Position numbers and translations under genes: made by a program
The notes under the pieces: model-generated
Database searches by the model: none
The model's input: the letters and a program-made list of their open reading frames with translations, nothing else
What the model was told of the DNA's origin: nothing
DNA from: Siphonodentalium dalli
Taxonomy: Eukaryota > Mollusca > Scaphopoda > Gadilida > Siphonodentaliidae
Direction of reading: 5' to 3'
NCBI GenBank assembly: GCA_032622095.1
Contig: CP136061.1
Coordinates: 236,115,815 to 236,179,814, forward strand
DNA: 64,000 nt
Shown here: positions 1-62,875 of the stretch, in pieces
Layout of the letters: every line of letters begins with the position of its first letter
How positions within the stretch are numbered: position 1 is the stretch's first letter

Positions 1-1083
1 ATGACCACACGAAGCAGAAGTATTTATCCACCAGTTGTCAACCAGTTTTCCCAGATCAGACCATTAATTTTTTTTTTGGCGAATTTTTTCAATGGTGTTT
101 TTGCTTTTGCTCACTCAAAATTTTTCGAGAACATCCATTCACTAGTATAGTTCCTGGACTTCCACGCTTCCAAAACAAATGTCGGTATATAGTTGAATCT
201 GTCAATGAAGCATAGGATTTGACAGAATTTTAAAAATCCATGTCGTTCTCAATATCCGCGCGAAATGAAGGGACCACTGTCGGTCCAGAAAGATCCGAAA
301 GGCACAGATGAAGATTCGACCAAACGCCGAGTTTCTGTGCAGTAAATATGCGTATTACTTAAGGAGTTCTGATGAGTTTTCGAGTGTGTATATTTATCTG
401 AGACTGATCAATTGGACTGCGAATGACATCGGAAATATGAATCCATAAGATATTCGAAATATTGTGTGCATATATATTATGAATATGTTTCAATTGAAAT
501 TAATTGAACATCCATCTCAGCATTCAGATTTGCGATCTCAAGAACGTGAATGAATGATAACGCGATTCCTTGATCACACGCACGTGAATGCTGCCGTTCG
601 CATGCATGCAGCTAATCGGATATTCGTTTAGTATTAACATGCTTGGAGTTTGTATATAGACCACACATGCCGCACGACACGGCGTATCAACGATTTGTTA
701 TAATCATGTTTATTGTACAGACGTTATGACTCGTTCCCACTCGAGTAGACCGCTCTTTAAAAAACTTCTCCAAATATGCCCGTTATTTCGTCAAAAACAC
801 TTCTTCAAATATCTCCGTTATTTAGTTAATAAAAATAATTTCTTATTTCATAATTCGCGCTATTTCGTCATTTCGATGCATTTTTTATTCCGCAATTTCG
901 CTGTATTTTCCTATTTCGCTTTTTCGTGGTATTTCATATTTCGATAATTCGCTATATTTGACATATTATGGGATATTGGCATGCCTCAACGGCTGGCGTG
1001 GCATGCCACATACCCTTTATCACTGAGGAATTTTAACTAATAGTTTTGTATTACTACAGAGTAACATTGGTCTGTATCAGGTG
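1..1083. other. AT-rich intergenic sequence, TTTCG-rich patch
   Basis: I see no coding signal or recognisable element. Between about 780 and 955 the plus strand repeats short TTTCG/ATTTCG words at irregular spacing, giving a low-complexity patch that keeps a chance open frame of 73 codons (phenylalanine and serine rich). That frame has no protein-like features and is not annotated as a gene. Confidence 0.5.
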
Positions 1084-2334
1084 TAAATTACCTGGTTACC
1101 AATTTGTTCTAGGTTGGGCCTGAATGGTGACTTCAACGACCAAACTATTAATTAGAGAGCTGTTAATATTTTGTAGAACATCCCTTGTCATAATGAGGTG
1201 CGAAAAAACTTAACCTGATAATTTTAACCCCTCCCCCGCCACACCCGCTGAAAGCAGGCAAATATTTGAATCGTTGTCTAAAATACGACATTTTTCACAT
1301 TAAATATTGTTTGGAAACTCAAACTGTCGGAAGAATCTCAACTGATATTTGGTGCCATTGATTCAGGTAAAATCGCCAAAACTCAAAGAAATCGACCATA
1401 CCACTTCATAGAAAACATTGTCTGAACTATACTCAATTAATATTTACATTTTGATTCGGGACCCAACTATCGGCGATAAACTAACACAAATGATTTCGCC
1501 ATCGAGAGTCATTGCAATTAATTCATATATAAGAATGACGTTGTGTGTTGTCAATTTGGATTAATATTCGTAAAATATAACTACTTTGAGCAAGATTATG
1601 ACAGCGTGTCACCTCTTAGGGCAATATTTCATACCATTATAATAACGTGGCTGCCAACATGGCGACCAGAAATTAACTTTGGACACTTTTTGAGTGAATT
1701 CGCTAGAAAAGACAATTTTACTGTTTTGGAAATGACTTAATTTTTCAAATAACATACTGATGCATCGTTTGACGAGTGACGTGTATGAGGTCACAGCCCT
1801 TCTCAATCCCTCAACAAAATGTAAGTTTAAAGAACGCATAATACTCTCCTTTGCAGTCTAGTTATTTTTACAGAGGAAATGTGCACATTAAAAGAAACTA
1901 GAGCCTTGAGTTGTGTTTGATCATATCCGGTGCATATGTTGGTTTAATTTTCAGGAGCACTATATGTTATGTTATATCAAACACGCAAAAATGAAATGAG
2001 ATTCTCCATTAAGTTCCATTATGTGCCAGACGATTGTTTTGCCAAAATTTCAGGATATGTCAAAATGGTTTATCTCAAAATCTGTCTGGAATTTCTTTTT
2101 GAAAAATGGGACAAACGATTATTATGATACAATTAAGAACAACCAACCCGTTGGAGATTATAACCCCCAAAAAATACTGTAGTCAATTTCCAACGTATGA
2201 GACACCAATTGATTACAAGCAATATCTTGGACCAGCTCGTAACACAGACCTAGAATCTACCCTCTAATTAATAGTCTGGTCGTTGAAGTCAAAATGAGGC
2301 TCAACCTAGAACAAATTGGTAACCAGGTGATTTA
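1084..2334. mobile_element. TIR element, 1.25 kb, non-autonomous
   Basis: Arms of about 74 bp at 1084-1158 and 2261-2334 are inverted copies of each other. They share runs such as ACCTGGTTACCAATTTG and TTCTAGGTTG, then GACTTCAACGACCA and ACTATTAATTAGAG. The roughly 1.1 kb between them has no transposase-like frame, so this looks like a non-autonomous DNA transposon or MITE-like element. The arms differ at several positions, so it is old. I found no clear target-site duplication, and the true outer ends may lie a few bases away. Confidence 0.6.
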
Positions 2335-3410
2335 GGCGTTAAAACAATGCGAAAATATCCATGAAACTACATAATCAAAATCCGCAAAAATCTGCTTTAT
2401 AATTCAAGATGGTGCCCATCATGGTTCTGAATAACGCATGTTGTCTTGAATACGAGCAGAACATGATAATGTTTGAATGTCTCCACTCATTTCCAATATT
2501 TAAGGAATAATTTCAAAATAGTTTTGTATTGAAAATGAACTCACTGCATGACCTGCTCACGATCGCACACCAACCATTCAGATCGTTGATTGGTTAAATG
2601 GGCATTATTCCCACTTTGTCTACTGCGAAATCCCTAATAAAATATTTTTAAATATAGGAGTGGAGTGGATCTCACATATTTAATCATTTTAAAACTGTTG
2701 TGTTGTTCTAATCACAAAATAATAATATTATGTCAGTTTAAACAACACTTCGCTCAAGATTGCCATTCTACTTTAATACCTAACAGAAAAAATCAATAAA
2801 ATTGACACTTCCTATAAAATTTAGAAACACGTTCATTCAGGTAATTCCTTCGCACATTGATATTCGTTCACTGTTATTCGGTGAATTTACCGGAAGTAAG
2901 CGACAGTGAAGATATCATTTTTGAATAACAAATGATGTCTTTACTGTCGGTCTATAGACACTAAATACGTATTTACGGCAATTTCCCACTATTTAATGGG
3001 GAAGCATAATTATACTAAACATTTGTCTCTATCGATCGTGATGTTGGTACTTTGTGAGCAATTACTATATATAATATGAAGTCTCATGGTCTCATTTTGA
3101 AAGTATTTCATTGAAAACAAAACATTTCTCCCGTTAATACATATCACACATGTAACTAAATTAATGACAATATATTCGAGGCGTTTGTCAATGCTAACCT
3201 CGAGATGATGTACAAGATTTTGGGCATTCCCTTCGTGTTATCGGCCGAAGGAGTAATCTGGTATATCAGTGTGTGTTGGGCGACAAATATTTGTCGTGCA
3301 GTTGAATCATTCCACTCATAAATCACTTCACTGCACACAGAAACCACTGTCATCAGACAGTAACTGACAATTTGAAAGGATAGTTTTAGTTATCTCTACA
3401 TAAGTATTTT
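2335..3410. other. AT-rich intergenic sequence, nothing recognised
   Basis: No exon-like frame, tandem array or inverted repeat was recognised. The minus-strand open frame at 3156-3353 has no protein-family character. Confidence 0.4.
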
Positions 3411-3533
3411 GTTATAATGAGATATTTTCTCGTTATAACATGATAGTTTCTCGTTATAGGGAGATGCATATGTCGTTATTTTGAGATCATATTTCGTTAT
3501 AACGAGATCGTAACTCATTATAACGAGATAGAC
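3411..3533. repeat. Palindromic minisatellite, TCGTTATAACGAGAT
   Basis: About six imperfect copies of a self-complementary word (core TCGTTATAACGA, with flanking GAGAT/ATCTC) spaced about 20-25 bp apart. Because the unit is itself a palindrome, the whole stretch can fold on either strand. It lies 80 bp left of the first Foldback-like element. Confidence 0.7.
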
Positions 3534-3620
3534 AAACTATTTCGGATGTCCAAAATCAGCCACCATAAGTTACTTATGTACGTCAATGATAACTGCTTTC
3601 TCTCCAAAAAGAGTGTCAGA

Positions 3621-3890
3621 CCGATTCTCCGAAGACCTATTACTACGAAGGCCCACAACTCCGAAGACCCGATTCTCCGACGGCCCACAACTCCGAAGTC
3701 CCGATTCTCCGACGGCCCATAACTCGGAAGATCCGATTCTCCGAAAGCCCATAACTCCGAAGGGCCGATTCTCCGAAGACCTATAACTCCGAAGGGCCGA
3801 TTCTCCGAAGACCTATAACTCCGAAGGCCCGATTCTCCGACGGCCCATAACTCGGAATGTCCGATTCTCCGAAGGTCCGATTCTCCGAAG
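3621..3890 (+). repeat. 15-bp tandem array, left arm of Foldback-like copy 1
   Basis: Eighteen units of 15 bp (270 bp). Two unit types are mixed: CCGATTCTCCGAAGG and CCATAACTCCGAAGG, sharing the 3' half CTCCGAAG. Since 15 is a multiple of three, all frames that escape a stop stay open and give five-residue repeat peptides (for example PILRR/HNSEG). These frames are a by-product. Confidence 0.9.
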
Positions 3891-4127
3891 ATTTTGTTTT
3901 ATCGGGGTATTATCGTTTACTAAATAGTGTACAGTCCAGTGGCGAAGCCAAGGGGTCCCAAAATTCCTACTGCCCCCATTAAACCTCTACTTGCTATTTC
4001 AGACAATATGGGCCCCTACCAAAACATGTCCAATGTCATGTAAACGCCCGGAAATCGTTCATGGGGCATCAAAATATTCAAACTTTTCCTACTGCCCCCA
4101 CCTAAATGGGAATCCTGGCCCGCCACT

Positions 4128-4865
4128 ATAAATATATAAGTGAGTAGATGGGCGCGAAGCGCCCGGGATGGTCGAAAGGGTCGAGTGAGCTTCTCCTTTA
4201 CCCCACGGTTTGTTGTTGTTGGAGATATGGCACACAGAAAATCGTCATGTCTGAACACGGCAAAAGCGGACACAATTGAATTAATGTTATCTTTTTGATT
4301 GAATTAATTTGGATGGATTATTTGGGGAAGAGCCCACGAGCTTTAATATGGGGTGTGAGGGGTGTCCCGGTGGGTCCCTTTAATATATGGTTGAGCTGAG
4401 CGTGTCATATGGTGCGCTGAAAAGGAACGGGGCCCGTGTTATAATTTAAAATAGTGTTAGTTTGTTAGTTATTTAAAAAAGAAAAAACAACCGCAAGGCA
4501 GAGCGTGTGATTCAATGTGATTCAATGCGCTATCATATCGCGATCCTGCTATAGCCAAATGCGCAGAGACAGTATGTTTTGGTTATTTCGTTGTTCTGTA
4601 TGGACCGCCCTACATCTCATAGCACGGGCGTAAGTGAAGACTCAGACAATTTTATGTGCAGAGTTATTTGGGTTTCGATAAATGAAGTAAATCTGATTGA
4701 TAATGTACAAGATAGACTTTAATTGTTTACGATATATGTGAATGGTTTTGTACAGAGATATATATGATTACATTCAATAGATTTTTTGGTTTTATATTTT
4801 TTAGGTAATTTCTTTATTTTGTTAAAATTATGTATACATTTAGTACATGTCAGTGTGTCCTTGAA
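4128..4865. mobile_element. 738-bp insertion with 9-bp target duplication
   Basis: CCCGCCACT stands at both edges (4119-4127 and 4866-4874), and the uninterrupted site with a single copy occurs in the sister element (reverse complement near 9352-9360). This is therefore an insertion into copy 1. No terminal inverted repeats are evident. The left edge is AT-rich (ATAAATATATAAG), which would suit a retroposon tail on the minus strand. It contains a GGGCGCGAAGCGCCC hairpin near 4149. No reading frame of interest was found. Confidence 0.75.
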
Positions 4866-5350
4866 CCCGCCACTGACTATACACCAGATACTATATCTAT
4901 AACGCATTTCTTTGAAGTATTTTCAGTCGCCAGAAAAAAGGGCGAGTTCTGCCCCTTTGGCCCCCGTTCGCCCCTGTGCATGTTAGGCTATTCTGACATT
5001 CTTGCAGCGTTTCGTTAGAATATTCCCGGTGCACACCAGTGGTGGAGCCAGGGTTCCCATTTAGGGGTGCATATTAATTAGCATATGTGGGGGATATATC
5101 ATGCATATGATATGCCGAAAGCATATCACGAAGGCCCGATTTGGGGAGCGCATGCATGGGAGGGGTCGCCCCCAATCGTTGGTCCGGGGGCTCCCCTGGG
5201 CAGGAACACTGAATATTTGAATGCCTAGGAGGGATTTCCGGACGTTTACATGACATTTGACATGTTTTTTGGGGGGGGGCGGTCTTCCCTAGGGCCACAT
5301 TGACTCCGCCACTGGACTGTACACTATTTAATAAGCGATAAAACATGATC

Positions 5351-5570
5351 TTCGGAGAATCGGACCTTCGGAGAATCGGCCCTTCGGAGTTATAGATCTT
5401 CAGAGTTATGGGCGTTCGGAGTTATAGGCCTTCGGAGTTATGGGCTTTCGGAGTTATGGGTCTTCGGAGTTATTGGATTTCGGAGAATCGGGACTTCGGA
5501 GTTATGGGCTTTCGGAGAATCGGGGCGTCGGAGAATCGGACCTTCGGAGTTATGGGTCTTCGGAGAATCG
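5351..5570 (-). repeat. 15-bp tandem array, right arm of Foldback-like copy 1
   Basis: About 14.7 units of the same 15-bp repeat as 3621-3890, in reverse orientation (CTTCGGAGAATCGG and CTTCGGAGTTATGG types). Confidence 0.9.
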
Positions 5571-5589
5571 CCACGTAACAAAAAAGAGC

Positions 5590-6385
5590 GTGGATGGACG
5601 TCCCGGATACCTAACAAACACATTTGAAATAAGCCAACGCCATCGACCGCCACAGCTTCAACGTATATTTGTATAAACTACATCTCTGCTATAACACAGA
5701 CAAATTATCATCCTAGTTATCAAGGCCGATGTATAGACTAAACCGGTGCACAATTTATTAAAACTTGAGCAGGCGCTCTACCTACATCCATACAGTATGT
5801 GCCACAACAGAAATAATTGAACTTTGCTGAATTATGTTCAAGTACAAACAGATTTAAAATCGAAGAACAATTTTCTTTGTTGCAGTGACATATAAGTTTG
5901 CGACAATTGTACTTGTAAATGAGTATGAGCCACACTGGACATGACACCCATCGATTTCTTGCACAAACTTTCATTCGAGCACCTCTATAATTCTGAACCA
6001 AAGCACCATAATTGTGTGCTGATTCTTAATCCGGCCAACACATTTAATCTTGCGTTAACAAGACAGTCTTCGACACCGATAAGATATATATTAGTTAAAA
6101 TTGGAACATAAAACACTATCACTTATATTTCCATCGTGATAAAGTGTATGTTTGAATAGTTTCTTCTAATTTACCATTAAAATTTTAGTCAAAGAAGGGA
6201 AGGATTTTTTTTTGTGAAATTGAGTTTTTGTATGAATATCCCCAAAAAAATCCATTAACTGAATATTTAAGAAATTTACAAATTTAACCAATTTCCCTTG
6301 TTATTACACTATTTCAGTATAGTATGTTGTCTATTATTTACTTATTCTTGCAAAGAATGTTGCTTTGCAGTTCCAGATAAGACAT
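5590..6385. other. Intergenic sequence, nothing recognised
   Basis: No support for a gene or repeat. The open frame on the minus strand at 5738-6001 has no recognisable domain or splice context. Confidence 0.4.
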
Positions 6386-6579
6386 ACACCATTTAGACGA
6401 ATTTCAATGTTACGTCAGTGTAAACAAATTAAGTCATGAATTGTTTTTAAATCGCAATTTCCAACTATTAATTTGAAGGACAACACCATTTAGACGAATT
6501 TCAATGTTACGTCAGTGTAAACAAATTAAGTCATGAATTGTTTTTAAATCGCAATTTCCAACTATTAATTTGAAGGACA
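6386..6579. repeat. Perfect 97-bp tandem duplication
   Basis: The block 6386-6482, starting ACACCATTTAGACG, is repeated without visible change at 6483-6579. Two exact copies imply a recent duplication, or an assembly artefact. Confidence 0.9.
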
Positions 6580-7208
6580 AACTCATGATATCATGTCTCA
6601 CTAATGTATGCTATAGGACTATAACAACACCTGTTTACCCTCACACTATGAGAGATATGTTCTAATTATATAAACAAAAAAATGGTTTAAAAAACAAGAT
6701 CTTTTGAGGCGGGTTTGCATTTGAGAGTTTGACAGAAAATATTTGCCAAAAAATGCACTGCATTGTCTAGCTTAGGAATCAGCTAGGGTCTATATTCTGA
6801 CTGTTATCTGAAATAATGACTGTCTGCGAGAAAATAAATCAAACATTTTTCATTACATATTTTTTTTGTAGCCATTGGTGCCATTTGGCTCTCAATTTGG
6901 GTAATTGTTTGTTTTTTGTTTAGTTAGGGTTTAACGTCGTTTTAGCCATAAGGCCATATCACGACTGAGATAAATTGAATCAATATTTAGCGGAGCAACT
7001 GTGAGTAGATTTAACTGTGAATTAGACTAAAATATAACAAACTATTTACAAATAAAAGCACCCAAAATCAGTACGAGAGTTCTTGATTTGGGGTCAAATG
7101 GGGTAAATGGTGGACTTCCAGCAAAATAGGTTTCCCGGTGACCGTATCCCGAGCAATATGGCTTATTTCAGTGGAAATCTCATCATCGTCACTGTGAACC
7201 TCCCTTAC
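6580..7208. other. Intergenic sequence
   Basis: No gene is supported. The stretch around 6915-6980, with TTTAACGTCG and CCATATCACGACTG, resembles dispersed invertebrate repeats as I remember them; I cannot confirm this from one copy. Confidence 0.35.
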
Positions 7209-7386
7209 TTTTCATTTTCATGTTCTAAGCTTTTACCGTCTGTGCAGTCTGATTGCACTCGGCTTTTCATTGTGCATATGGACTTCACATTGGTTGTTTG
7301 TTCTTCGCCTCCGAAATTATTCACGGCTGTTGGACATTGCCTTCTTTTCGAATTTTCTCTGATAAAGACAGGACTGTCCCATGAAT
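7209..7386 (-). CDS. Candidate internal exon, unknown protein
   Basis: On the minus strand a pyrimidine run ending in TTTTTTTTAG precedes position 7386, and a good donor (AA|GTAAGG) follows position 7209. The 178 bp between them are open in one frame and would add 59 residues, hydrophilic and with several cysteines and charged residues (for example RENSKRRQC and GEEQTTNVK). The exon would begin after one base of a codon and end after two. I recognise no domain. Chance splice signals are common in AT-rich DNA and no partner exon was found, so this is a weak call. A 112-codon frame on the opposite strand over the same bases is hydrophobic and less convincing. Confidence 0.3.
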
Positions 7387-7557
7387 CTAAAAAAAAGAAA
7401 GATATATTTTGTATTGTGCTGACATTGATGTCCAGTTTTGCTTGATATTTACTGGTCTGCAATCGTTGATATTTATCAAATTATTATTAGTTATGGCTGT
7501 TTTTCTTATGCCAATCAACACCAGGAATGGCAGTAAAATGAGCCAATATTTCTGACC

Positions 7558-7880
7558 ATGGCAGGAAGCAACGAGTCTAAGGAGGAACTATCGGAAATTA
7601 ACTTGATCTGGGGATGCAGAAATAAGTGATGAACAATCGCGCCTCGGAATTAGGTTGTCGGGCGTCATATACGAGCGAGAAAAACAGAGCGAAGGGTGGA
7701 GTTGTTCAGAATGCAAATTCGGATTCTTCTGACAAAAGGGACGTCAATCTTGATTACCGTCGGGAAATGGATGAGCTCAGTAGAAGGGTTGAGAAGATGT
7801 TAAAATGGAACGGTTTAATACGCCCGTTTGAAGGAGACATATCTGAGGTGAATTATGCGGAAAATGATGATGAGGATTAG
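7558..7880 (+). pseudogene. Possible coding fragment in two frames, unknown
   Basis: An ATG in a strong Kozak setting (GACCATGG at 7555-7562) opens a hydrophilic 23-codon frame that stops at about 7629. A second frame, ATG at 7626, overlaps its end and runs 84 codons to 7880 with an acidic tail (ENDDED) and a helical, charged middle (REMDELSRRVEKMLKW). Both pieces have protein-like composition, unlike their AT-rich surroundings. They could be one frame broken by a shift, or two parts of a spliced gene. I recognise no family. The frames may also be chance. Confidence 0.3.
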
Positions 7881-8602
7881 TGGCGACCGAAAATTAGAAA
7901 GCCCTAAAAAACAAAAAAATTCAAATCTGGTATCGACATCAAACGAAGTGATAATGTATTGATGCCGCAAATGTTCCCACACAATACGTTCCGGTTTGAG
8001 TATATAAACTCTGGTACATAATTTTCTGATTTAACTTTTCAGCAAATATCTGCAGGCGAGTTGAAAATAATTTCTCGATCTGACATCTCAATCGAGTGCA
8101 GGGGTCGGCTATCTTTGTTGAAAAAGAAAACTTACTTCCAGTCTATCTAGTATATGAGTGGAAGCCTTACTCAATGTGTATGCCGATTGGCTCAGGCGTA
8201 TATAATTGGGTTTGAATAGCTGGTCTGATGATTCACAACAAATTGAAACACAAATTTTAGCGAAATTTGTGAAAGCAAAGGATAAATTCGTAGGTTCGAA
8301 AACCGAACCTTCGTAGTTTGTTGGGAACATCGGCGGTAACAATAATCTGTGATTTTGTTCTATATGTATAAATGTAATATATGTTCACATACCGGTTCAC
8401 ATACAGCAACCATTCGTGGCAAGGAAAAGCATGTGGAACATATTTGTGCCACTTGCTGGCAGAATAAACAAGAAAGGAGTTCTCACCCGGAATGTTCTCA
8501 GGCATGTCCGTCACAAAGCTGACTATACCTTACTCGAATTTAAATTCGCGCAGTACTATTTTTCGCTCTGTATGAATTCGGGCATATTAAATTCGCGCAC
8601 CT
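7881..8602. other. Intergenic sequence, nothing recognised
   Basis: No exon or repeat unit seen. The open frame that begins at 8416 only becomes long by running into the 15-bp array of the next element. Confidence 0.4.
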
Positions 8603-8627
8603 ATCTGCGCGGTTACGTAGCGTTTTT

Positions 8628-8873
8628 CCGAAGACCCATAACTCCGAAGATCCGATTCTCCGAAGGTCAGATTCTCCGACGCCCCGATTCTCCGAAAGCC
8701 CATAACTCCGAAGTCCCGATTCTCCGAAATCCCATAACTCCGAAGACCCATAACTCCGAAAGCCCATAACTCCGAAGGCCTATAACTCCGAACGCCCATA
8801 ACTCCGAAGGTCTATAACTCCGAAGGGCCGATTCTCCGAAGGTCCGATTCTCCGAAGGTCCGATTCTCCGAAG
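8628..8873 (+). repeat. 15-bp tandem array, left arm of Foldback-like copy 2
   Basis: About 16 units of the 15-bp repeat in the CCGAAG orientation, mixing the GATTCTCCGAAG and ATAACTCCGAAG unit types. Confidence 0.9.
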
Positions 8874-9583
8874 ATCATGTTTTATCGCTTATTAAATAGT
8901 GTACAGTCCAGTGGCGGGGTCAATGGGGCCCTAGGGAAGACCGCCCCAAAAAACATGTCAAATGTCATGTAAACATCAGGAAATCCCTCCTAGGCATTCA
9001 AATATTCACAGTGTTCCTGCCCAGGGGAGCCCCCGGACCAACGATTGGGGGCGACCCCTCCCATGTATGCGCTCCCCAAATCAGGCCTTCGTGATATGCT
9101 TTCGGCATATCATATGCATGATATATCCCCCACATATCCCCCACATATGCTAATTAATGTGCACCCCTAAATGGGAACCCTGGCTCCGCCACTGGTGTGC
9201 ACCGGGTATATTATAATGAAACGCTGCAAGAATGTCAGAGTAGCCTAACGTGCACAGGGGCGACAAGTTCTTCCCCGTTCACCCCTGTACATTTTACTCT
9301 GGCATCGCATGGGCCAACGTAACGTTATAGTATCTGGTGTATAGTCAGTGGCGGGCCAGGATTCCCATTTAGGTGGGGGCAGTAGGAAAAGTTTGAATAT
9401 TTTGATGCCCCATGAACGATTTCCGGGCGTTTACATGACATTGGACATGTTTTGGTAGGGGCCTATATTGTCTGACATAGCAAGTAGAGGTTTAATGGGG
9501 GCAGTGGGAATTTTGGGACCCCTTGGCTTCGCCACTGGACTGTACACTATTTAGTAAACGATAATACCCCGATAAAACAAAAT

Positions 9584-9870
9584 CTTCGGAGAATCGGACC
9601 TTCGGAGAATCGGACCTTCGGAGTTATGGGCCGTCGGAGAATCGGGCATTCGGAGTAATAGGTCTTCGGAGAATCGGCCCTTCGGAGTTATAGGTCTTCG
9701 GAGTTATAGGTCTTCGGAGAATCGGCCCTTCGGAGTTATGGGCTTTCGGAGAATCGGATCTTCGGAGTTGTGGGCCGTCGGAGAATCGGGTCTTCGGAGT
9801 TGTGGGCCGTCGGAGAATCGGGTCTTCGGAGTTGTGGGCCTTCGTAGTAATATATATCTTCGGAAAACCG
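9584..9870 (-). repeat. 15-bp tandem array, right arm of Foldback-like copy 2
   Basis: About 19 units of the 15-bp repeat in the CTTCGG orientation. The outermost units are the most diverged (CTTCGGAAAACC). Confidence 0.9.
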
Positions 9871-9889
9871 GTCTGACACCATCTGCGCG

Positions 9890-30996: not shown

Positions 30997-33900
30997 AGAT
31001 AAGATAAGATAAGATAAGATGATTTATTGCAATACACCAAATGGAGGCAGTTGCAAATAACAGTTAATACATGAAAAGTTACACATTAAAATAAAATACA
31101 TTTAATTATGCATATGTACGATAAATGATCATTAGTATTATAAATTAATACTTTCAACTTTTATTTCCCCATATTGACATTCTGTCTTTTTAGAAAGAAT
31201 AACCGGATCATGTTGCACACGGAATTGATTATTTGTTTGTCTTTGTTTTTCATTATAAAGATGAACTTATTATCATCACTCATGTTTATGAAATCTATGC
31301 TATACTTTTGAGCAATATTAAACAAGTCTTTTCTAGAGTCAGCGTACGCACTGCATTCCATAATAAAATGTTTTTCTGTTTCAACTTTACGTTCATCACA
31401 CATGTGACAAATTCGGTCTTTTAATGGCGTCTTCGGTTGCGTGTGTCGACCCTTTTCTATAGCTAAAATATGATTGCTAACACGTAGTCGAGTGAACATC
31501 TCTCTTGCCGCGGACGATCGAACGTGCCTCAGGTACGGTTCTATGTCATAATTGTCTTTAAAAGTTCTGTAAGTTCGCAATTTATTAGCACCACCTGGTC
31601 TGTCGTCATCGAAAATGTCTTTTTTGAACTTATTTATATGTTCTGATTTTAACCTTTAAATTATTAGTTTGTCTGTCACTCTTACTGTTGTATTAGATTG
31701 TGATATATTGATACCACTTTTGACTAACTGTGCGTCCCAAGTTGATTGATTAGACATGAGGGATTCCCTAAAAGAATCATGCATTAAAGTTCTTGATTTT
31801 AATGCACGCAGTTTAGTTAGATATTTATACATATTACCAATAGCATTAATTGCTATGGGATATCGACCCAGTTCAGCCCTCGAAGCATGATTTGAGGCCT
31901 TTTTATTCAACCTGAGTATATTCTTACAAAATTTCAAGTGTGTTTGCTCAAGTGGGTTAGTGTCAATAAATGGATTTTTTAACTCGGATGCCCATATTTC
32001 AGAACCATACAGCAATATAGGCATTATTAATTTGTCAAACAACTTACATTTAGTATTGAGAGACAATTCTATATGTGAATTCAGTGAGCTCGTCATGAAA
32101 AACATAGCCTTAGAAGCTCTCCCACTTAAATTTTCACAAGCTTTCGACATTTTACCGTCAGAAGTGAAGACGAGACCTAAGTATTTATATTCGTCAACTC
32201 TTTCTAGCAACTCATTGTTGATATAAAATGTATTGTCTATATTTAACTTCCGCTTATTTGATTTAAATATCATGCATTTTGTTTTGTCTGCATTAACTGT
32301 TAGATTATTTTGAAAACTATATTTTTCCAATTCATGCAAAGAATTCTGCAAACCATCAGGCGTTTCAGATAGTAAAACGAGATCATCAGCGAAAAGTAAA
32401 TGCGTAATCGGACGATTGTTCAAATAGCACGGGTTAGACATGTTAGTTAATTTGCCGCCAATATCGTCTATGAATATTTTGAAAAGAGTGGGTGATAGGG
32501 AGCACCCCTGCCTTACTCCTATTTTCGACAATAAAGCGGGACCAAATCCTACTGAAGTTTTAACGGAATAATAACTTGACTTATAAATAGACTGTAAAAT
32601 CGCGAGTGTCGACCCGTTAATGCCAATACCTCGAAGTTTTCTAAATAAAATAGACCTATCTACAGAGTCGAACGCTTTCTTGAAGTCTACAAAGGCCGTA
32701 TACAGAGGTTTTTTCATATCTTTGTACTTATTGACTAACGTACGCAGGACGAATGCACTGTCGACTGTACTGCGATTTTTTCTAAATCCGAATTGATTAT
32801 CGCTTATTAGTTCGTTTTTTTCTAAATAATTGTCTATTCTAGAATTAATAATTTTATTGAACAGTTTTCCAAAATTACTACTCAGAGCGATTGGTCTGTA
32901 ATTGTTTGGATCATGTCTGTTTCCTTTTTTGTACAATGTTTTAATAAATGAATGACTCCAACATAACGGATAATGTCCTGACTTCAAGACATGGTTAAAA
33001 AGTTTTGTCACATCATCTACTACCAATGGAATAACTGTTTTTAGTAATTCGTTTGGAATGTTATCTAAACCCGTCGCTTTTCTATTTTTTAATTGCCTGA
33101 TTGCATCAAGTACTTCTGTTGCAGTTATGTCACTATTGTTTATGTCTATAAGATGATCATTGTCTTTCGACGCTTGATATTCAAAGTTCGTTTCACGGGT
33201 ATCGCAGCAAAGTAATTTATCAAAGAAATCGACCACATCATCAGGGTGAAGGTCGTCGGACTTTTCTTGTGCTTTGTTAATACGTAAACTTTTGATTATA
33301 TTCCAGTATACCGATGGGTCACAACTTTCGAGCTTATCTATTTTTTCAGACATTTGTAGCCGAAATAATTTAGCCTTATGCTTCGTTTCTCTTTTATATA
33401 ATTTCTTGGCATTGAAAAACTTTAATTGTAGACTTTTGTCTAGAGGATTCTTTTTCATTTCGCTGACTATATTCTCCATAATTCTTTTCAAATCTTTACA
33501 ACGTTGATCAAACCATATTCGTTTTCGTTGTTGCTTCCGATGTTTTATTTTTACAACTTTTGTCGCAGTCTGATTGATAAATTTGAATATTTCACACATA
33601 TCATGAGTTGCATTTTCAGTTCCGTTCAAATTCTCCGGATAGGCTCGTAGTCTGAAATTCATCAGACGTCTCTGTATATGTGGCTCATATAACGCCATAT
33701 TTGCTTTGTCAGAACTATCGTCGCACCAGTGCACCCTAACAGTTCGATCGGTGTAGTTATATTTTAGTTTTTGTGTTTCGAATTTACAAACTCTAAAGTT
33801 TAAATGCACCGAGAGTTGACTGTGATCTGAAAATTCTGTTGGGGGTTTTACACAAAAGTAGGTAACGTCAGATAAATATTTCTCATTTGTTATTATATAA

Positions 33901-34650
33901 TCTACTATGCTAGCTCCGTTGTATTGGTAGCTGGTGAAATTGCCAAGAGAATCTCCAAACATTCTGCCGTTCACTATTCTCAATCCACTGGACTTACATA
34001 TATTCAAGAGTTGTGTCCCAAAATCATTGCAAGTTTTATCAAGACTAGCCCTTTCTTTCACTGAATCAATCGTATAGTTATCGTGCACTACAACGTGCTT
34101 GTCGTCATCGTGTGCAACATAATCTGGCTTCCCTCCGGTTCTAGCATTGAAATCTCCCCCAAGAATAACCAATTGATCAGATTTCAAATTCGTAAGTTTG
34201 TTTGCGAGATCACTATAAACCCTTTCTCGTTTGTCGCTAGAATTTATCGGGGATATATAAACAGAAATGAAAACGATGTTTTTCTTCAATCCCAACATTT
34301 TACCTTCAAACTCAACCCACAATGTCGTATCGTCAATTCGCTTAACGGATTTAATATAGCTTTTATATATAGATTTACAGTAAAACGCAATTCCTCCCCG
34401 CGCCGTCTTTTCTTTTCTACAAAGATCAACACAATGATACTCTGGAATTTGGATGTTTGCGATATCCGTATACCAAGTTTCTGTTAAAGTAATAAAATCA
34501 TAACGATTTACAAGCTTAATAAAATCAGAGTCAGTTAATTTTCTAGCGAGTCCTTGAATATTCCAAACAGTGTAGCAAATATTTTTGATATCATGCTTAT
34601 AAACCATTTCTGGTGTAAATCTAGGAGTAAATCCAGGAGGTCATCGGAGA
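30997..34650 (-). mobile_element. Non-LTR retrotransposon (LINE), nearly full ORF2
   Basis: Minus-strand element: ORF2 (34607-31161), a 3' UTR of about 140 bp, and a tail of ATCTT repeats (plus-strand 30997-31020, AAGAT repeats) just after GCAATAAATC. The microsatellite tail in place of poly(A) suggests a CR1/L2/Jockey-type lineage, but I cannot assign the clade. No ORF1 is visible upstream (34608-35190 has no suitable frame), so the copy is 5' truncated or the family lacks ORF1. No target-site duplication was found. Confidence 0.85.
31161..34607 (-). pseudogene. LINE ORF2: endonuclease / reverse transcriptase, one in-frame TAA
   Basis: The protein would nick target DNA and prime reverse transcription of the element's RNA there. 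Residues 1-270 form an APE-type endonuclease: N16 (WNIQGL), E43 (LTETW), D152/N154 (GGDFN), and SDHS at 260-263. Residues 500-830 form the reverse transcriptase: D641 in block A (FVDFKKAFDS), RQGCSLSP at 699-706, catalytic FADD at 739-742, and YLGLVFT. TAA at 31656-31658 stops it after residue 983. The same frame then continues for 164 residues with a CCHC knuckle (CHMC...H...C; C-x2-C-x9-H-x4-C), the usual C-terminus. So a single nonsense codon separates this copy from an open frame of about 1,148 codons. The ATG at 34607 is the first after an in-frame TGA. Plus-strand frames inside it are shadows. Confidence 0.95.
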
Positions 34651-44461: not shown

Positions 44462-47400
44462 ATATTAAAAATCAAAGTTATGGAGATACATAATATGAAC
44501 TTTATATTTTGAAGCCATATTCTTGCAATAGTCTTACGAAATGACTAGATATAATTTAAGATGCTAGCATACGCGAGAAATTTAACCCTCAATACACGAA
44601 TGCGGGACCTGGTTTAATCTTTGTAAAACGCTATATCAGTACATGGCATTGGTTATAATAATCAAAGGCACGGGCGGCGTTCGTTGCAGAAATATCATAT
44701 GTGTTCAAATCCCAACCAACAGAAGGAATATTAAAAAATATATAGTTTTGATCATATGCAAACATAATCAGCGCGTAAATAGTATATTGTCCTCAATGTG
44801 CACTATGGTGGCGTAAAAAGCAGTCTGCTCATGTTACAGAAGTTTTGCTTTTGTTTACACAACACAACGCAAGTATAGTAGTTGACCACACCAAAATTAT
44901 ATAAACGCTCTTTATTATTTCCATATAAGGAACAAATAACGCTCTTTATGTTTACCATATCCGGATCTAAACAAAAGCAAGGAAACGTAACGGTTTTTCC
45001 CTTTCTTTACATAATATGCGCAAAACACAACGCAATCATATTGGTTAATCACACAAACATTATATAAACGCTCTTCATTATTTCCATATAAGAAAAATAG
45101 TAACAAACAAGGCTCTTTATGCTTACCATATCCGGATCTATACAAAATTCAGGAAACGTAACGGTTTTTTCCTTTTGTTTGCACAACAAACTGAAAACGA
45201 TGAACAATAACATACTGTTTATGCCATATTTCTGTATGATATAACAACAACTTCTGCCTATATTTTACTATTTCTGTTTACGGGGGTTTTTGACGGAGCT
45301 GAATATTTTAACAGCATACCCACCGCCAAAGACAGCCCGTATCTTTAATATGAGCAATAAAAGATGTTTTTTTATTAATACCAAATGCTCTCACCATACC
45401 CTGAAGCTGCACGTTGCATGGAAAATGATATATTGAGATGTCTGCCTAAGGTCGGATTATTTCAAGAGTCTCCCGAATGTCGTTAGGTATATGTATATCA
45501 TTACATGGTATTGGTTATAATAATTAAAGGCACGGGCGGCGTTCGTTGCAGTACTATCCATATGTGATCAAATCGCCACCAACAGATGGAATATTAAAAT
45601 ATATATAGCTTTGTTGAGATGTCTCCCTAAGGTAGGATTATTTCAAGAGTCTCCCTAATGTCGTTAATTTTGTTAGCTATATGTATATGTATATCAGTAC
45701 ATGGCATTGGTTATAATAATTAAAGGCACGGGCGGTGTTCGTTGCAGAAATATTAATATGTGGTCAAATCGCCACCAACAGATGGAATATTAAAATATGT
45801 ACAGTTTTGTTCATATGCAAACGTAATCAGCGCGTGAATAGTGTATTGTCCTCAATGTTTACGATGATTGCGTAAACAACAGCATGCTCGTGTTACAGAA
45901 GTTTTGCTTCTGTTTACAAAACACAACGCAATCATATTGGTTAATCACACAAACATTATATAAACGCTCTTCATTATTTCCATATAAGAAAAATAGTGAC
46001 AAACAACGCTCTTTATGCTTACCATATCCGGATCTATACAACAGTCAGGAAACGTAACGGTTTTTTTTCCTTTTGTTTGCACAACAAAGTGAAAACAATT
46101 GACAATAACATACTGTTTATGCCATATTTCTGTATGATATAACAACAACTTCTGCCTATATTTTACTATTTCTGTTAATGGCGGTTTTTGACGGAGATGA
46201 ATATTTTAACAGCATACCCACCGCCAACACCGCCCGTATATCTTTAATATGAGCAATACAAGATGTTTTTTTATTAATACCAAATGCTCTCACCATACCC
46301 AGAAGCTGCACGTTGCATGGAAAATGATATATTGAGATGTCTGCCTAAGGTCGGATTATTTCAAGAGTCTCCCGAATGTCGTTTCACGTTGTTAGGTATA
46401 TGTATATCATTACATGGTATTGGTTATCATAATTAAAGGCACGGGCGCCGTTCGTTGCAGAACTATTCATATGTGATCAAATCGCCACCAACAGATAGAA
46501 TATTAAAATATATATAGCTTTGTCGAGATGTCTCCCTAAGGTCGGATTATTTCAAGAGTCTCCCTAATGTCGTTGATTTTGTTAGCTATATGTATATGTA
46601 TGTCAGTACATGGCATTGGTTATAATAATTAAAGGCACGGGTGGCGTTCGTTGCAGAACTATTAATATGTGATCAAATCGCCACCAACAGATGGAATATT
46701 AAAATATATATAGCTTTGTCGAGATGTCTCCCTAAGGTCGGATTATTTCAAGAGTCTCCCTAATGTCGTTGATTTTGTTAGCTATATGTATATGTATGTC
46801 AGTACATGGCATTGGTTATAATAATTAAAGGTACGGGCGGTGTTCGTTGCAGAAATATTAATATGTGGTCAAATCGCCACCAACAGATGGAATATTAAAA
46901 TATGTACAGTTTTGTTCATATCCAAACGTAATCAGCGCATGAATAGTGTATTGTCCTCAATGTGTACGATGATTGCGTAAACAACAGCATGCTCGTGTTA
47001 CAGAAGTTTTGATTCTGTTTACATAACACAACGTAATCATATTGGTTAATCACACAAACGTTATATAAACGCTCTTCATTATTTCCATATAAGAAAAAAA
47101 TAGTAACAAACAACGCTCTTTATGCTTACCATATCCGGATCTATACAAAAGTCAGGAAACGTAACGGTTTTTTCCTTTTGTTTGCACAACAAAGTGAAAA
47201 CAATTGACAATAACATACTGTTTATGCCATATTTCTGTTTGATACAACAACAGATTCTGCCTATATTTTACTATTTCTGTTTATGGCGGTTTTTGACGGA
47301 GCTGAATATTTTAACAGCATACCCACCGCCAAAGACAGCCCGTATCTTTAATATGAGCAATAAAAGATGTTTTTTTATTAATACCAAATGCTCTCACCAT

Positions 47401-47813
47401 ACCCTGAAGCTGCACGTTGCATGGAAAATGATATATTGAGATGTCTGCCTAAGGTCGGATTATTTCAAGAGTCTCCCGAATGTCGTTTCATGTTGTTAGG
47501 TATATGTATATCATTACATGGTATTGGTTATAATAATTAAAGGCACGGGCGGCGTTCGTTGCAGAACTATTCATATGTGATCAAATCGCCACCAACAGAT
47601 GGAATATTAAAATATATATAGCTTTGTCGAGATGTCTCCCTAAGGTCGGATTATTTCAAGAGTCTCCCTAATGTCGTTAATTTTGTTAGCTATATGTATA
47701 TGTATATCAGTACATGGCATTGGTTATAATAATTAAAGGCACGGGCGGTGTTCGTTGCAGAAATATTAATATGTGATCAAATCGCCACCAACAGATGGAA
47801 TATTAAAATATGT

Positions 47814-50800
47814 ACAGTTTTGTTCATATGCAAACGTAATCAGCGCACGAATAGTGTATTGTCCTCAATGTGTACGATGATTGCGTAAACAACAGCATGC
47901 TCGTGTTACAGAAGTTTTGCTTCTGTTTACATAACACAACGCAATCATATTGGTTAATCACACAAACATTATATAAACGCTCTTCATTACTTCCATATAA
48001 GAAAAATAGTAACAAACAACGCTCTTTATGCTTACCATATCCGGATCTATACAAAAGTCAGGAAACGTAACGGTTTTTTCCTTTAGTTTGCACAACAAAG
48101 TGAAAACAATTGACAATAACATACTGTTTATGCCATATTTCTGTATGATATAAAAAACAACAAATTCTGCCTATATTTTATTATTTCTGTTTATGGCGTT
48201 TTTTGACGGAGATGAATATTTTAACAGCATACCCACCGCCAACCCCGCCCGTATCTATAATATGAGCAATAAAAGATGTTTTTTTATTAATACCAAATGC
48301 TCTCACCATACCCAGAAGCTGCACGTTGCATGGAAAATGATATATTGAGATGTCTGCCTAAGGTCGGATTATTTCAAGAGTCTCCCGAATGTCGTTTCAT
48401 GTTGTTAGGTATATGTATATCATTACATGGTATTTGTTATAATAATTAAAGGTACGGGCGGCGTTCGTTGCAGAACTATTCATATGTAATCAAATCGCCA
48501 CCAACAGATGGAATATTAAAATATATATAGCTTTGTCGAGATGTCTCCCTAAGGTCGGATTATTTCAAGAGTCTCCCTAATGTCGTTAATTTTGTTAGCT
48601 ATATGTATATGTATATCAGGACATGGCATTGGTTATAATAATTAAAGGCACGGGCGGTGTTCGTTGCAGAAATATTAATATGTGGTCAAATCGCCACCAA
48701 CAGATGGAATATTAAAATATGTACAGTTTTGTTCATATGCAAACGTAATCAGCGCATGAATAGTGTATTGTCCTCAATGTGTACGATGATTGCGTAAACA
48801 ACAGCATGCTCGTGTTATAAAAGTTTTGCTTCTGATTACATAACACAACTCAATCATATTAATTAATCACACAAACATTATATAAACGCTCTTCATTATT
48901 TCCATATAAGAAATATAGTAACAAACAACGCTCTTTATGCTTACCATATCCGGATCTATACAAAAGTCAGGAAACGTAACGTAAAGTTTATGCCATAGTT
49001 CTGTATGATATAACAACAAATTCTGCCTATATTTTACTATTTCTGTTTATGGCGGTTTTTGACGGAGCTGAATATTTTAACAGCATACCCACGGCCAAAG
49101 ACAGCCCGTATCTTTAATATGAGCAATAAAAGATGTTTTTTTTATTAATACCAAATGCTCTCACCATACCCAGAAGCTGCACGTTGCATGGAAAATGATA
49201 TATTGAGATGTCTGCCTAAGGTCGGATTATTTCAAGAGTCTCCCGAATGTCATTTCATGTTGTTAGGTATATGTATATCATTACATGGTATTGGTTATAA
49301 TAATTAAAGGCACGGGCGGCGTTCGTTGCAGAACTATTCATATGTGATCAAATCGCCACCAACAGATGGAATATTAAAATATATATAGCTTTGTCGAGAT
49401 GTCTCCCTAAGGTCGGATTATTTCAAGAGTCTCCCTAATGTCGTTAATTTTGTTAGCTATATGTATATGTATATCAGTACATGGCATTGGTTATAATAAT
49501 TAAAGGCACGGGCGGTGTTCGTTGCAGAAATATTAATATGTGATCAAATCGCCACCAACAGATGGAATATTAAAATATGTACAGTTTTGTTCATATGCAA
49601 ACGTAATCAGCGCACGAATAGTGTATTGTCCTCAATGTGTACGATGATTGCGTAAACAACAGCATGCTCGTGTTACAGAAGTTTTGCTTCTGTTTACATA
49701 ACACAACGCAATCATATTGGTTAATCACACAAACATTATATAAACGCTCTTCATTACTTCCATATAAGAAAAATAGTAACAAACAACGCTCTTTATGCTT
49801 ACCATATCCGGATCTATACAAAAGTCAGGAAACGTAACGGTTTTTTCCTTTAGTTTGCACAACAAAGTGAAAACAATTGACAATAACATACTGTTTATGC
49901 CATATTTCTGTATGATATAAAAAACAACAAATTCTGCCTATATTTTATTATTTCTGTTTATGGCGTTTTTTGACGGAGATGAATATTTTAACAGCATACC
50001 CACCGCCAACCCCGCCCGTATCTATAATATGAGCAATAAAAGATGTTTTTTTTATTAATACCAAATGCTCTCACCATACCCAGAAGCTGCACGTTGCATG
50101 GAAAATGATATATTGAGATGTCTGCCTAAGGTCGGATTATTTCAAGAGTCTCCCGAATGTCGTTTCATGTTGTTAGGTATATGTATATCATTACATGGTA
50201 TTGGTTATAATAATTAAAGGTACGGGCGGCGTTCGTTGCAGAACTATTCATATGTAATCAAATCGCCACCAACAGATGGAATATTAAAATATATATAGCT
50301 TTGTCGAGATGTCTCCCTAAGGTCGGATTATTTCAAGAGTCTCCCTAATGTCGTTAATTTTGTTAGCTATATGTATATGTATATCAGGACATGGCATTGG
50401 TTATAATAATTAAAGGCACGGGCGGTGTTCGTTGCAGAAATATTAATATGTGGTCAAATCGCCACCAACAGATGGAATATTAAAATATGTACAGTTTTGT
50501 TCATATGCAAACGTAATCAGCGCATGAATAGTGTATTGTCCTCAATGTGTACGATGATTGCGTAAACAACAGCATGCTCGTGTTATAAAAGTTTTGCTTC
50601 TGTTTACATAACACAACTCAATCATATTAATTAATCACACAAACATTATATAAACGCTCTTCATTATTTCCATATAAGAAATATAGTAACAAACAACGCT
50701 CTTTATGCTTACCATATCCGGATCTATACAAAAGTCAGGAAACGTAACGTAAAGTTTATGCCATAGTTCTGTATGATATAACAACAAATTCTGCCTATAT

Positions 50801-53800
50801 TTTACTATTTCTGTTTATGGCGGTTTTTGACGGAGCTGAATATTTTAACAGCATACCCACGGCCAAAGACAGCCCGTATCTTTAATATGAGCAATAAAAG
50901 ATGTTTTTTTTATTAATACCAAATGCTCTCACCATACCCAGAAGCTGCACGTTGCATGGAAAATGATATATTGAGATGTCTGCCTAAGGTCGGATTATTT
51001 CAAGAGTCTCCCGAATGTCATTTCATGTTGTTAGGTATATGTATATCATTACATGGTATTGGTTATAATAATTAAAGGCACGGGCGGCGTTCGTTGCAGA
51101 ACTATTCATATGTGATCAAATCGCCACCAACAGATGGAATATTAAAATATATATAGCTTTGTCGAGATGTCTCCCTAAGGTCGGATTATTTCAAGAGTCT
51201 CCCTAATGTCGTTAATTTTGTTAGCTATATGTATATGTATATCAGTACATGGCATTGGTTATAATAATTAAAGGCACGGGCGGTGTTCGTTGCAGAAATA
51301 TTAATATGTGATCAAATCGCCACCAACAGATGGAATATTAAAATATGTACAGTTTTGTTCATATGCAAACGTAATCAGCGCACGAATAGTGTATTGTCCT
51401 CAATGTGTACGATGATTGCGTAAACAACAGCATGCTCGTGTTACAGAAGTTTTGCTTCTGTTTACATAACACAACGCAATCATATTGGTTAATCACACAA
51501 ACATTATATAAACGCTCTTCATTACTTCCATATAAGAAAAATAGTAACAAACAACGCTCTTTATGCTTACCATATCCGGATCTATACAAAAGTCAGGAAA
51601 CGTAACGGTTTTTTCCTTTAGTTTGCACAACAAAGTGAAAACAATTGACAATAACATACTGTTTATGCCATATTTCTGTATGATATAAAAAACAACAAAT
51701 TCTGCCTATATTTTATTATTTCTGTTTATGGCGTTTTTTGACGGAGATGAATATTTTAACAGCATACCCACCGCCAACACCGCCCGTATCTATAATATGA
51801 GCAATAAAAGATGTTTTTTTATTAATACCAAATGCTCTCACCATACCCAGAAGCTGCACGTTGCATGGAAAATGATATATTGAGATGTCTGCCTAAGGTC
51901 GGATTATTTCAAGAGTCTCCCGAATGTCGTTTCATGTTGTTAGGTATATGTATATCATTACATGGTATTGGTTATAATAATTAAAGGTACGGGCGGCGTT
52001 CGTTGCAGAACTATTCATATGTAATCAAATCGCCACCAACAGATGGAATATTAAAATATATATAGCTTTGTCGAGATGTCTCCCTAAGGTCGGATTATTT
52101 CAAGAGTCTCCCTAATGTCGTTAATTTTGTTAGCTATATGTATATGTATATCAGGACATGGCATTGGTTATAATAATTAAAGGCAAGGGCGGTGTTCGTT
52201 GCAGAAATATTAATATGTGGTCAAATCGCCACCAACAGATGGAATATTAAAATATGTACAGTTTTGTTCATATGCAAACGTAATCAGCGCATGAATAGTG
52301 TATTGTCCTCAATGTGTACGATGATTGCGTAAACAACAGCATGCTCGTGTTATAAAAGTTTTGCTTCTGTTTACATAACACAACTCAATCATATTAATTA
52401 ATCACACAAACATTATATAAACGCTCTTCATTATTTCCATATAAGAAATATAGTAACAAACAACGCTCTTTATGCTTACCATATCCGGATCTATACAAAA
52501 GTCAGGAAACGTAACGTAAAGTTTATGCCATAGTTCTGTATGATATAACAACAAATTCTGCCTATATTTTACTATTTCTGTTTATGGCGGTTTTTGACGG
52601 AGCTGAATATTTTAACAGCATACCCACGGCCAAAGACAGCCCGTATCTTTAATATGAGCAATAAAAGATGTTTTTTTTATTAATACCAAATGCTCTCACC
52701 ATACCCAGAAGCTGCACGTTGCATGGAAAATGATATATTGAGATGTCTGCCTAAGGTCGGATTATTTCAAGAGTCTCCCGAATGTCATTTCATGTTGTTA
52801 GGTATATGTATATCATTACATGGTATTGGTTATAATAATTAAAGGCACGGGCGGCGTTCGTTGCAGAACTATTCATATGTGATCAAATCGCCACCAACAG
52901 ATGGAATATTAAAATATATATAGCTTTGTCGAGATGTCTCCCTAAGGTCGGATTATTTCAAGAGTCTCCCTAATGTCGTTAATTTTGTTAGCTATATGTA
53001 TATCAGTACATGGCATTGGTTATAATAATTAAAGGCACGGGCGGTGTTCGTTGCAGAAATATTAATATGTGATCAAATCGCCACCAACAGATGGAATATT
53101 AAAATATGTACAGTTTTGTTCATATGCAAACGTAATCAGCGCACGAATAGTGTATTGTCCTCAATGTGTACGATGATTGCGTAAACAACAGCATGCTCGT
53201 GTTACAGAAGTTTTGCTTCTGTTTACATAACACAACGCAATCATATTGGTTAATCACACAAACATTATATAAACGCTCTTCATTACTTCCATATAAGAAA
53301 AATAGTAACAAACAACGCTCTTTATGCTTACCATATCCGGATCTATACAAAAGTCAGGAAACGTAACGGTTTTTTCCTTTAGTTTGCACAACAAAGTGAA
53401 AACAATTGACAATAACATACTGTTTATGCCATATTTCTGTATGATATAAAAAACAACAAATTCTGCCTATATTTTATTATTTCTGTTTATGGCGTTTTTT
53501 GACGGAGATGAATATTTTAACAGCATACCCACCGCCAACCCCGCCCGTATCTATAATATGAGCAATAAAAGATGTTTTTTTATTAATACCAAATGCTCTC
53601 ACCATACCCAGAAGCTGCACGTTGCATGGAAAATGATATATTGAGATGTCTGCCTAAGGTCGGATTATTTCAAGAGTCTCCCGAATGTCGTTTCATGTTG
53701 TTAGGTATATGTATATCATTACATGGTATTGGTTATAATAATTAAAGGCACGGGCGGCGTTCGTTGCAGAACTATTCATATGTGATCAAATCGCCACCAA

Positions 53801-62430: not shown

Positions 62431-62875
62431 ACAGTTTTGTTCATATGCAAACGTAATCAGCGCGTGAATAGTGTATTGTCCTCAATGTGTACGATGATTG
62501 CGTAAACAACAGCATGCTCGTGTTACAGAAGTTTTGCTTCTGTTTACATAACACAACGCAATCATATTGGTTAATCACACAAACATTATATAAACGCTCT
62601 TCATTATTTCCATATAAGAACAATAGTAACAAACAACGCTCTTTATGCTTACCATATCCGGATCTATACAAAAGTCAGGAAACGTAACGGTTTTTTCCTT
62701 TTGTTTGCACAACAAAGTGAAAACAATTGACAATAACATACTGTTTATGCCATATTTCTGTATGATATAACAAAACATTCTGCCTATATTTTACTATTTC
62801 TGTTTATGGCTGTTTTTGAAGGAGATGAATATTTTAACAGCATACCCACCGCCAACACCGCCCGTATCTATAATA

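What the first reader, a model, noticed from the sequence alone, without database searches (positions are those of the whole stretch)
3614..9880. Two opposite copies of a Foldback-like element with 15-bp arrays as inverted ends
Seen: both copies (3614-5580, 8612-9880) have inverted arrays of a 15-bp unit as their arms. The second has a perfect 9-bp duplication ATCTGCGCG on its flanks; the first has AAAAAGAG. Known: Drosophila Foldback elements have long terminal repeats made of short tandem units and 9-bp duplications. Inferred: a family of the same architecture outside insects, perhaps unnamed. The arms allow large hairpins in each copy and pairing between copies.
Basis: partly seen in the sequence, partly recalled or inferred. 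Interest (0 to 1): 0.75.

Follow-up and report, generated by a model that had tools for sequence, protein, structure and literature searches.

The report
Recently active foldback-like DNA transposon family
The two segments are copies of one young, apparently non-coding jumping element whose ends are long inverted arrays of a 16-base unit; it is a new family of an already known foldback-like kind, and its enzyme is not yet proven.

Summary
The finding is real. Both segments belong to one high-copy DNA transposon family in this unnamed 2.2-Gb genome. Of 41 copies read, 39 are complete, and all 39 have array units at both ends. The unit is 16 bp, not 15. The ends are GGTGTCAGACCG and CGCTACGTAACC, asymmetric outside the arrays. 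Of the 39, 31 have exact target-site duplications: 21 of 8 bp, 9 of 9 bp, 1 of 10 bp. Three insertions have an uninterrupted paralogous empty site. The exact termini occur 922 and 924 times genome-wide (reversed-pattern control 0). Twenty-five subfamily-A interiors lie within 1.3% of consensus, so the burst looks recent, although sampling favoured close matches. 'Satellites beside an unrelated core' is refuted. I found no transposase in a copy (open frames checked in the two longest), so copies probably move in trans. The anatomy matches Tm1 (Mutator/Phantom, nematodes) best. One tandem cluster puts an exact right terminus 2.1 kb from a MULE transposase domain in the fitting orientation, but its left end was not found. 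Merlin (GG ends, 8/9-bp duplications) is the main rival. Verdict: a new family of a known kind, superfamily probably Mutator, not certain.

The parts
3606..3613 (.). target-site duplication AAAAAGAG, left of copy W1
3614..5580 (+). copy W1 (subfamily B, oriented with the GGTGTCAG-type end at left; outermost GG and CC absent)
3614..3889 (+). W1 left terminal motif plus array of about 16-17 units of 16 bp
3890..5350 (+). W1 interior (the family interior is 713 bp in subfamily A)
4128..4865 (.). W1-specific stretch not in the interior consensus; origin not determined
5351..5580 (-). W1 right array (about 14 units, inverted) plus right terminal motif CGCCACGTAACA
5581..5588 (.). target-site duplication AAAAAGAG, right of copy W1
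8603..8610 (.). target-site duplication ATCTGCGC, one side of copy W2
8611..9880 (-). copy W2 (subfamily A), opposite orientation to W1
8611..8872 (-). W2 right arm: GGTTACGTAGCG end motif and about 16 units
8873..9584 (-). W2 interior, 712 bp, 0.84% from the interior consensus
9585..9880 (-). W2 left arm: about 18 units and end motif CGGTCTGACACC
9881..9888 (.). target-site duplication ATCTGCGC, other side of copy W2

Best explanation
W1 and W2 are two independent insertions of one non-autonomous, foldback-like cut-and-paste DNA transposon family. Shown: fixed, asymmetric terminal motifs (GGTGTCAGACCG / GGTTACGTAGCG read inward) outside long inverted arrays of a 16-bp unit; insertion into unoccupied sites with an 8- or 9-bp duplication; many copies; little divergence among those sampled. 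Inferred: the copies are moved by a transposase supplied in trans; the arrays are repeated binding sites for it, as shown for the long ends of Galileo (PMC3688188, passages read); it cuts at the GG/CC ends and joins with a stagger of 8-9 bp; unit number drifts by slippage or unequal exchange in small blocks while the order of units is inherited. Most likely the enzyme is of the Mutator (MULE) superfamily and the element close in architecture to Tm1/Phantom; that last step is probable, not proven.
For: Copies: 40 scored matches among 1151 candidates to the interior; exact left terminus 922, exact right terminus 924, reversed-pattern control 0; of the first 100 left ends listed (all on C1), 76 have a convergent exact right end 0.9-3.7 kb away (paired by hand). 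Ends: GGTGTCAGACCG in 36 of 39 and CGCTACGTAACC in 37 of 39 complete copies. Duplications: exact 8 bp 21, 9 bp 9, 10 bp 1 of 39; as distinct sites 18, 9 and 1 of 28 exact. Control: among 1482 ordered pairings of flanks of different copies, 8 had no mismatch, the number of ordered pairs among copies with shared flanks, L010/L025/L031 and L041/L002. Empty sites for three insertions: L036 in L018, L033 in L036, L028 in L034 and L042. Youth: 25 subfamily-A interiors 0.14-1.28% from consensus. Arms: left and right arrays keep different, conserved unit orders. Mutator: asymmetric ends outside arrays of 13-15-bp units and 8-10-bp duplications are the published anatomy of Tm1; MULE duplications are 8-11 bp; MULE domains at C1:214712637, 214717712 and 214722793, minus strand, each lie 2,076 bp inward of the 26-base right-end match at 214714997, 214720072 and 214725153.
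Against: I found no transposase in any copy, but open frames were listed only for the two longest (L011; L048) and no domain search was run on the copies. The MULE link rests on one tandem cluster, so effectively one event; by my arithmetic about 0.03 such coincidences within 2.5 kb are expected among about 14 MULE loci and 97 right-end loci on the listed part of C1, before allowing for the several comparisons made. No array unit and no left end lies in the 1,201 bp fetched there (C1:214711150-214712350), and a MULE element nested in or beside a copy is not excluded. Compared by hand, none of the 150 listed MULE matches (of 813 candidates) lies within 10 kb of the 40 copies, just as for Merlin. 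Duplications are mainly 8 bp, while Tm1 and most MULE groups are mainly 9. GG ends with 8/9 bp fit Merlin too. The copies read were the best matches to W1's own interior, so divergence is biased low and decayed or unlike copies are under-sampled; 24 of the 100 listed left ends have no exact partner.
Confidence: 0.6

Rival explanations
1. The same non-autonomous foldback-like element, but mobilised by a Merlin (IS1595/IS1016-type) transposase.
For: [quoted passage not shown] this family has GG in 37 and CC in 38 of 39 copies and 8/9-bp duplications; the genome holds 62 Merlin-domain matches among 77 candidates.
Against: None of the 62 Merlin matches lies within 10 kb of the 40 copies, and the two that fall in the listed part of C1 are not within 10 kb of a listed terminus (compared by hand); only 100 of 922 and 100 of 924 termini are listed, and the same test on the 40 copies is negative for MULE. 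The one Merlin frame fetched (L047, 564 aa) showed no family ends, and its inverted repeats were short and imperfect. No Merlin with arms that are arrays was seen in the listings.
Confidence: 0.2
2. The same element mobilised by another superfamily (P/Galileo-like, hAT-like or undescribed).
For: Galileo shows that foldback-like ends arose in the P superfamily as well (PMC3688188, PMC4079207; passages); an 8-bp majority would fit hAT or P (recalled).
Against: A 9-bp minority (9 of 28 distinct exact sites) is not typical of hAT or P (recalled); no hAT or P search was made.
Confidence: 0.15
3. Satellite arrays adjoining an unrelated core, or segmental duplication rather than transposition.
For: A few copies share flanks (L010/L025/L031; L041/L002; L013/L014), so some copies did move with larger segments.
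Against: 39 of 39 complete copies have units at both ends inside fixed end motifs, 28 distinct exactly duplicated sites exist, and three insertions have empty sites.
Confidence: 0.02

Closest known systems
Tm1 (Mutator/Phantom foldback-like family, root-knot nematodes; PMC3169594, passages read)
   Same: Arms made of short tandem units (13-15 bp there, 16 bp here), unit number differing between arms and copies, short asymmetric end motifs outside the arrays, duplications of 8-10 bp, non-coding members.
   Different: Unit and end sequences differ; duplications here mostly 8 bp, there mostly 9; Tm1 has a known transposase-coding member, here none is proven.
Drosophila Foldback (FB/NOF)
   Same: Long inverted ends built of short tandem units; non-coding copies (recalled; foldback structure as described in PMC4079207, passages).
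   Different: Duplication 9 bp there (recalled), mostly 8 bp here; no NOF-like gene was searched for here.
Galileo (P superfamily) and Tetris (Drosophila)
   Same: Foldback-like long ends with internal tandem repeats; Galileo arrays contain extra transposase-binding sites (PMC3688188, passages); Tetris duplications 8-10 bp (PMC4079207, passages).
   Different: Much longer units in Tetris (about 220 bp); different hosts and ends.
Merlin superfamily
   Same: Terminal GG, 8- or 9-bp duplications, some with internal tandem repeats (PMC8101967, passages).
   Different: No Merlin with arms that are arrays seen in the listings; no Merlin gene found inside this family.
TU elements of the sea urchin
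   Same: Inverted ends with short tandem units and 8-bp duplications (recalled only; two searches listed no readable source).
   Different: Not comparable here.

Membership tests
Foldback-like elements (architectural group) | Long terminal inverted repeats composed of short tandem repeats | tested here: met
   array units at both ends of 39 of 39 complete copies; one arm is down to about 4-5 units in a few (L030, L043)
Foldback-like elements (architectural group) | Transposition with target-site duplication into empty sites | tested here: met
   31 of 39 exact duplications; empty sites for 3 insertions
Drosophila FB family | 9-bp duplication (recalled) | tested here: not met
   8 bp in 18, 9 bp in 9, 10 bp in 1 of 28 distinct exact sites
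Drosophila FB family | NOF transposase in the complete member, sequence relatedness to FB | not tested
   no NOF search made; no Repbase or Dfam
Mutator (MULE), Tm1/Phantom-like | Duplication of 8-11 bp (Phantom 8-10) | tested here: met
Mutator (MULE), Tm1/Phantom-like | Member with the same ends encoding a MULE transposase | tested here: inconclusive
   MULE domain 2,076 bp inward of an exact right terminus in a tandem cluster on C1; no unit or left end in the 1,201 bp read
Mutator (MULE), Tm1/Phantom-like | FLYWCH finger or other Phantom domains in the transposase | not tested
   the transposase frame could not be fetched
Merlin | Terminal 5'-GG and 8- or 9-bp duplication | tested here: met
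   GG in 37 of 39, CC in 38 of 39 copies; lengths, with one 10-bp site
Merlin | IS1595-type DDE transposase in a member with the same ends | tested here: inconclusive
   62 matches in the genome, none within 10 kb of the 40 copies (by hand); only the first 100 of 922 and of 924 ends are listed

The most novel reading that the evidence does not exclude
A foldback-like family driven by a Merlin-type transposase, which would make foldback ends an architecture evolved at least three times (Mutator, P, Merlin).
Probability: 0.15. Interest if true: 0.5.

Novelty: new member of a known kind. Interest (0 to 1): 0.33.

Why it matters
A young family with about 900 exact copies of each terminus, fixed ends and arrays of traceable unit order is a good natural series for asking what repeated end units do: whether unit number affects mobility, and how array length changes between transpositions. 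It also gives examples of rearrangement at foldback ends (L039, L022, a back-to-back pair of right ends). As a class of thing it is ordinary.

Tried and rejected
Merlin was my first assignment, from the GG ends and 8/9-bp duplications; I lowered it after reading the Tm1 anatomy and after the MULE co-location. Long copies as autonomous candidates: L011 (3.5 kb) holds a nested second foldback-like element; L048 (3.64 kb between exact ends, the longest pair listed) holds an insertion of about 2.6 kb, longest open frame 131 aa; L013 and L037 hold other inserts that were printed but not scanned for domains. Rfam gave nothing on the two elements and nothing at gathering score in the window; two sub-threshold miRNA-family matches lie elsewhere (bases 1-60000). 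Copies without an adjoining duplication: L022 has its GAAGTAGT 9 bp further on, after a short inverted filler; L039 has GCTGATAT beside a second, inverted right end; L019 stays unexplained. L044 also had matches spanning its joined flanks (in L045 and in the window), which I did not examine. L014 and L015 were left out of the counts of complete copies for lack of a left end; L001 and L003-L007 were replaced by longer fetches of the same places (L041-L046) and L008 by the window. Eight complete copies (L011, L012, L013, L030, L037, L043, L044, W1) were outside the interior alignment because of interior length or an undelimited interior. Repbase and Dfam not available; host not named; no unbiased genome sample.
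Full report
WHAT IS THERE. The segments at 3614-5580 (W1, plus orientation) and 8611-9880 (W2, minus orientation) are two copies of one element. Each has an interior (712 bp in W2; 1,461 bp in W1, which holds an extra stretch at about 4128-4865) between inverted arrays of a 16-bp unit. Two unit types dominate, NCCGATTCTCCGAAGR and NCCATAACTCCGAAGR; unit positions 8-13 are 93-100% fixed over 1,154 units. The arrays are far beyond chance.

THE FAMILY. The interior query 3900-4110 gave 40 scored matches out of 1,151 candidates in the window's own genome (2.23 Gb, 9 contigs). I read all 40 places (one is W1) and W2, 41 copies in all: 39 are complete at both ends, L014 and L015 are not. The left end is GGTGTCAGACCG in 36 of 39 and the right end CGCTACGTAACC in 37 of 39; the departures are single copies, W1 departing at both ends. 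Median length is 1,263 bp, range 925-3,547. Genome-wide the exact 26-base left end with first unit occurs 922 times and the right end 924 times; the reversed-pattern control gives 0. Of the first 100 left ends listed, all on C1, I could pair 76 by hand with a convergent exact right end 0.9-3.7 kb away; 24 have none, at least one of them (L032) because its right end has one substitution.

TRANSPOSITION. Directly outside GG...CC, 31 of 39 copies have an exact duplication: 21 of 8 bp, 9 of 9 bp, 1 of 10 bp; 4 more have one mismatch; W1 has its 8 bp offset by the missing terminal dinucleotides; L019, L022 and L039 have none in place. Reduced to distinct sites the exact ones are 18, 9 and 1 of 28. 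Three insertions have paralogous sites among the fetched sequences, 83-89% identical, that run through the insertion point without a gap and lack the element and one copy of the duplication. Some copies share flanks (L010/L025/L031, L041/L002, L013/L014), so part of the spread is by duplication of, or transposition with, surrounding DNA.

AGE AND ARRAYS. Interiors of 25 subfamily-A copies lie 0.14-1.28% from their consensus (three of them, L010, L025 and L031, share a site); six further aligned copies (L009, L041, L042, L045, L046, L002) are 8-27% off, at least partly because their middles are a different sequence; eight complete copies were not in that alignment. Sampling by best match to W1 makes the divergence a lower bound. 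Coding the units as letters shows that left arms share one order of units and right arms another; copies differ by loss or gain of small blocks. So the two arms are not kept alike, and unit order is inherited through transposition. The interior itself is built of two diverged modules in inverted orientation, both with CAGTGGCG-type ends (210 and 306 bp; 63 of 79 columns identical in the best stretch). As single-stranded DNA, window 8613-9881 (W2 without its first two bases and with one flanking base) folds into one long hairpin-like structure (-401.9 kcal/mol; no shuffle control at this length).

HOW IT WORKS. I found no transposase in a copy: open frames were listed for the two longest, the typical interior is only about 0.7 kb, and no domain search was run on the copies; so the family most likely moves in trans (inference). 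The arrays are probably repeated transposase-binding sites (inference by analogy with Galileo, PMC3688188, abstract and passages). The asymmetric end motifs outside the arrays, the short units and the 8-10-bp duplications are the anatomy published for Tm1, a Mutator/Phantom family (PMC3169594, passages). The Mutator reading gained a lead late: MULE domains (150 scored of 813 candidates) include three in a tandem cluster of about 5.08-kb period on C1, each 2,076 bp inward of the exact right-end match of this family and on the strand that reads inward. The 1,201 bp I could still fetch there, reaching 3.9 kb from the terminus, contain no array unit and no left end (read by eye; unit core with one mismatch, 0 matches), so the element is not closed. 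Because the cluster is a tandem duplication this is one event; I estimate about 0.03 expected by chance on the listed part of C1. Merlin fits ends and duplications as well (PMC8101967, passages), and 62 Merlin matches exist, but none within 10 kb of the 40 copies; the same is true of the 150 MULE matches (both compared by hand). The one Merlin frame fetched (L047) showed no such ends.

COMPARISON AND NOVELTY. It works like a foldback-like element. It is not shown to be a member of the Drosophila FB family: the 9-bp rule (recalled) is not met and NOF was not tested. It most resembles Tm1. I saw no description of it in the listings of seven searches of the open paper library; of papers I read passages of five (PMC8101967, PMC4079207, PMC3169594, PMC3688188, PMC6446971). 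Subscription papers, Repbase and Dfam were not seen. I file it as a new family of a known kind.

Noticed in passing
L011:about 4171-6398: Inside one copy lies another foldback-like element whose inverted ends (TGGGTCCCAGTATG...CATACTGGGACCCA) are arrays of a 21-bp partly palindromic unit (CTCCTAATTAGGAGATAGTAT).
   Followed up: partly
window 3411-3531: Just left of W1, 5.7 copies of a 21-bp unit (GTTATAACGAGATAGTTTCTC) of the same design (palindrome plus short spacer) as the 21-bp arrays nested in L011.
   Followed up: no
L039:2440-2700: A second right end in inverse orientation 227 bp from the copy's own right end, with the copy's missing duplication GCTGATAT beside it and host sequence repeated inverted: a rearrangement at a foldback end.
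   Followed up: partly
G000:C1:156153150-156153207: Two exact right ends of opposite orientation with 6 bp between them.
   Followed up: no
G000:C1:214712637-214728505: Tandem cluster with period about 5.08 kb: three MULE domains (330-aa open frames) and four exact right termini of this family: best lead to the transposase source.
   Followed up: partly
L047:1528-3219: Merlin-type transposase-like open frame of 564 aa with a long extra C-terminal part and no clear inverted ends found nearby; possibly domesticated.
   Followed up: partly
window 31161-34640: LINE-type endonuclease and reverse-transcriptase frame of 994 aa followed by a further 164-aa frame.
   Followed up: no
window 46334-62440: Repeated pairs of a 196-bp unit recurring about every 0.7-1.1 kb over 16 kb, a higher-order tandem array.
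   Followed up: no
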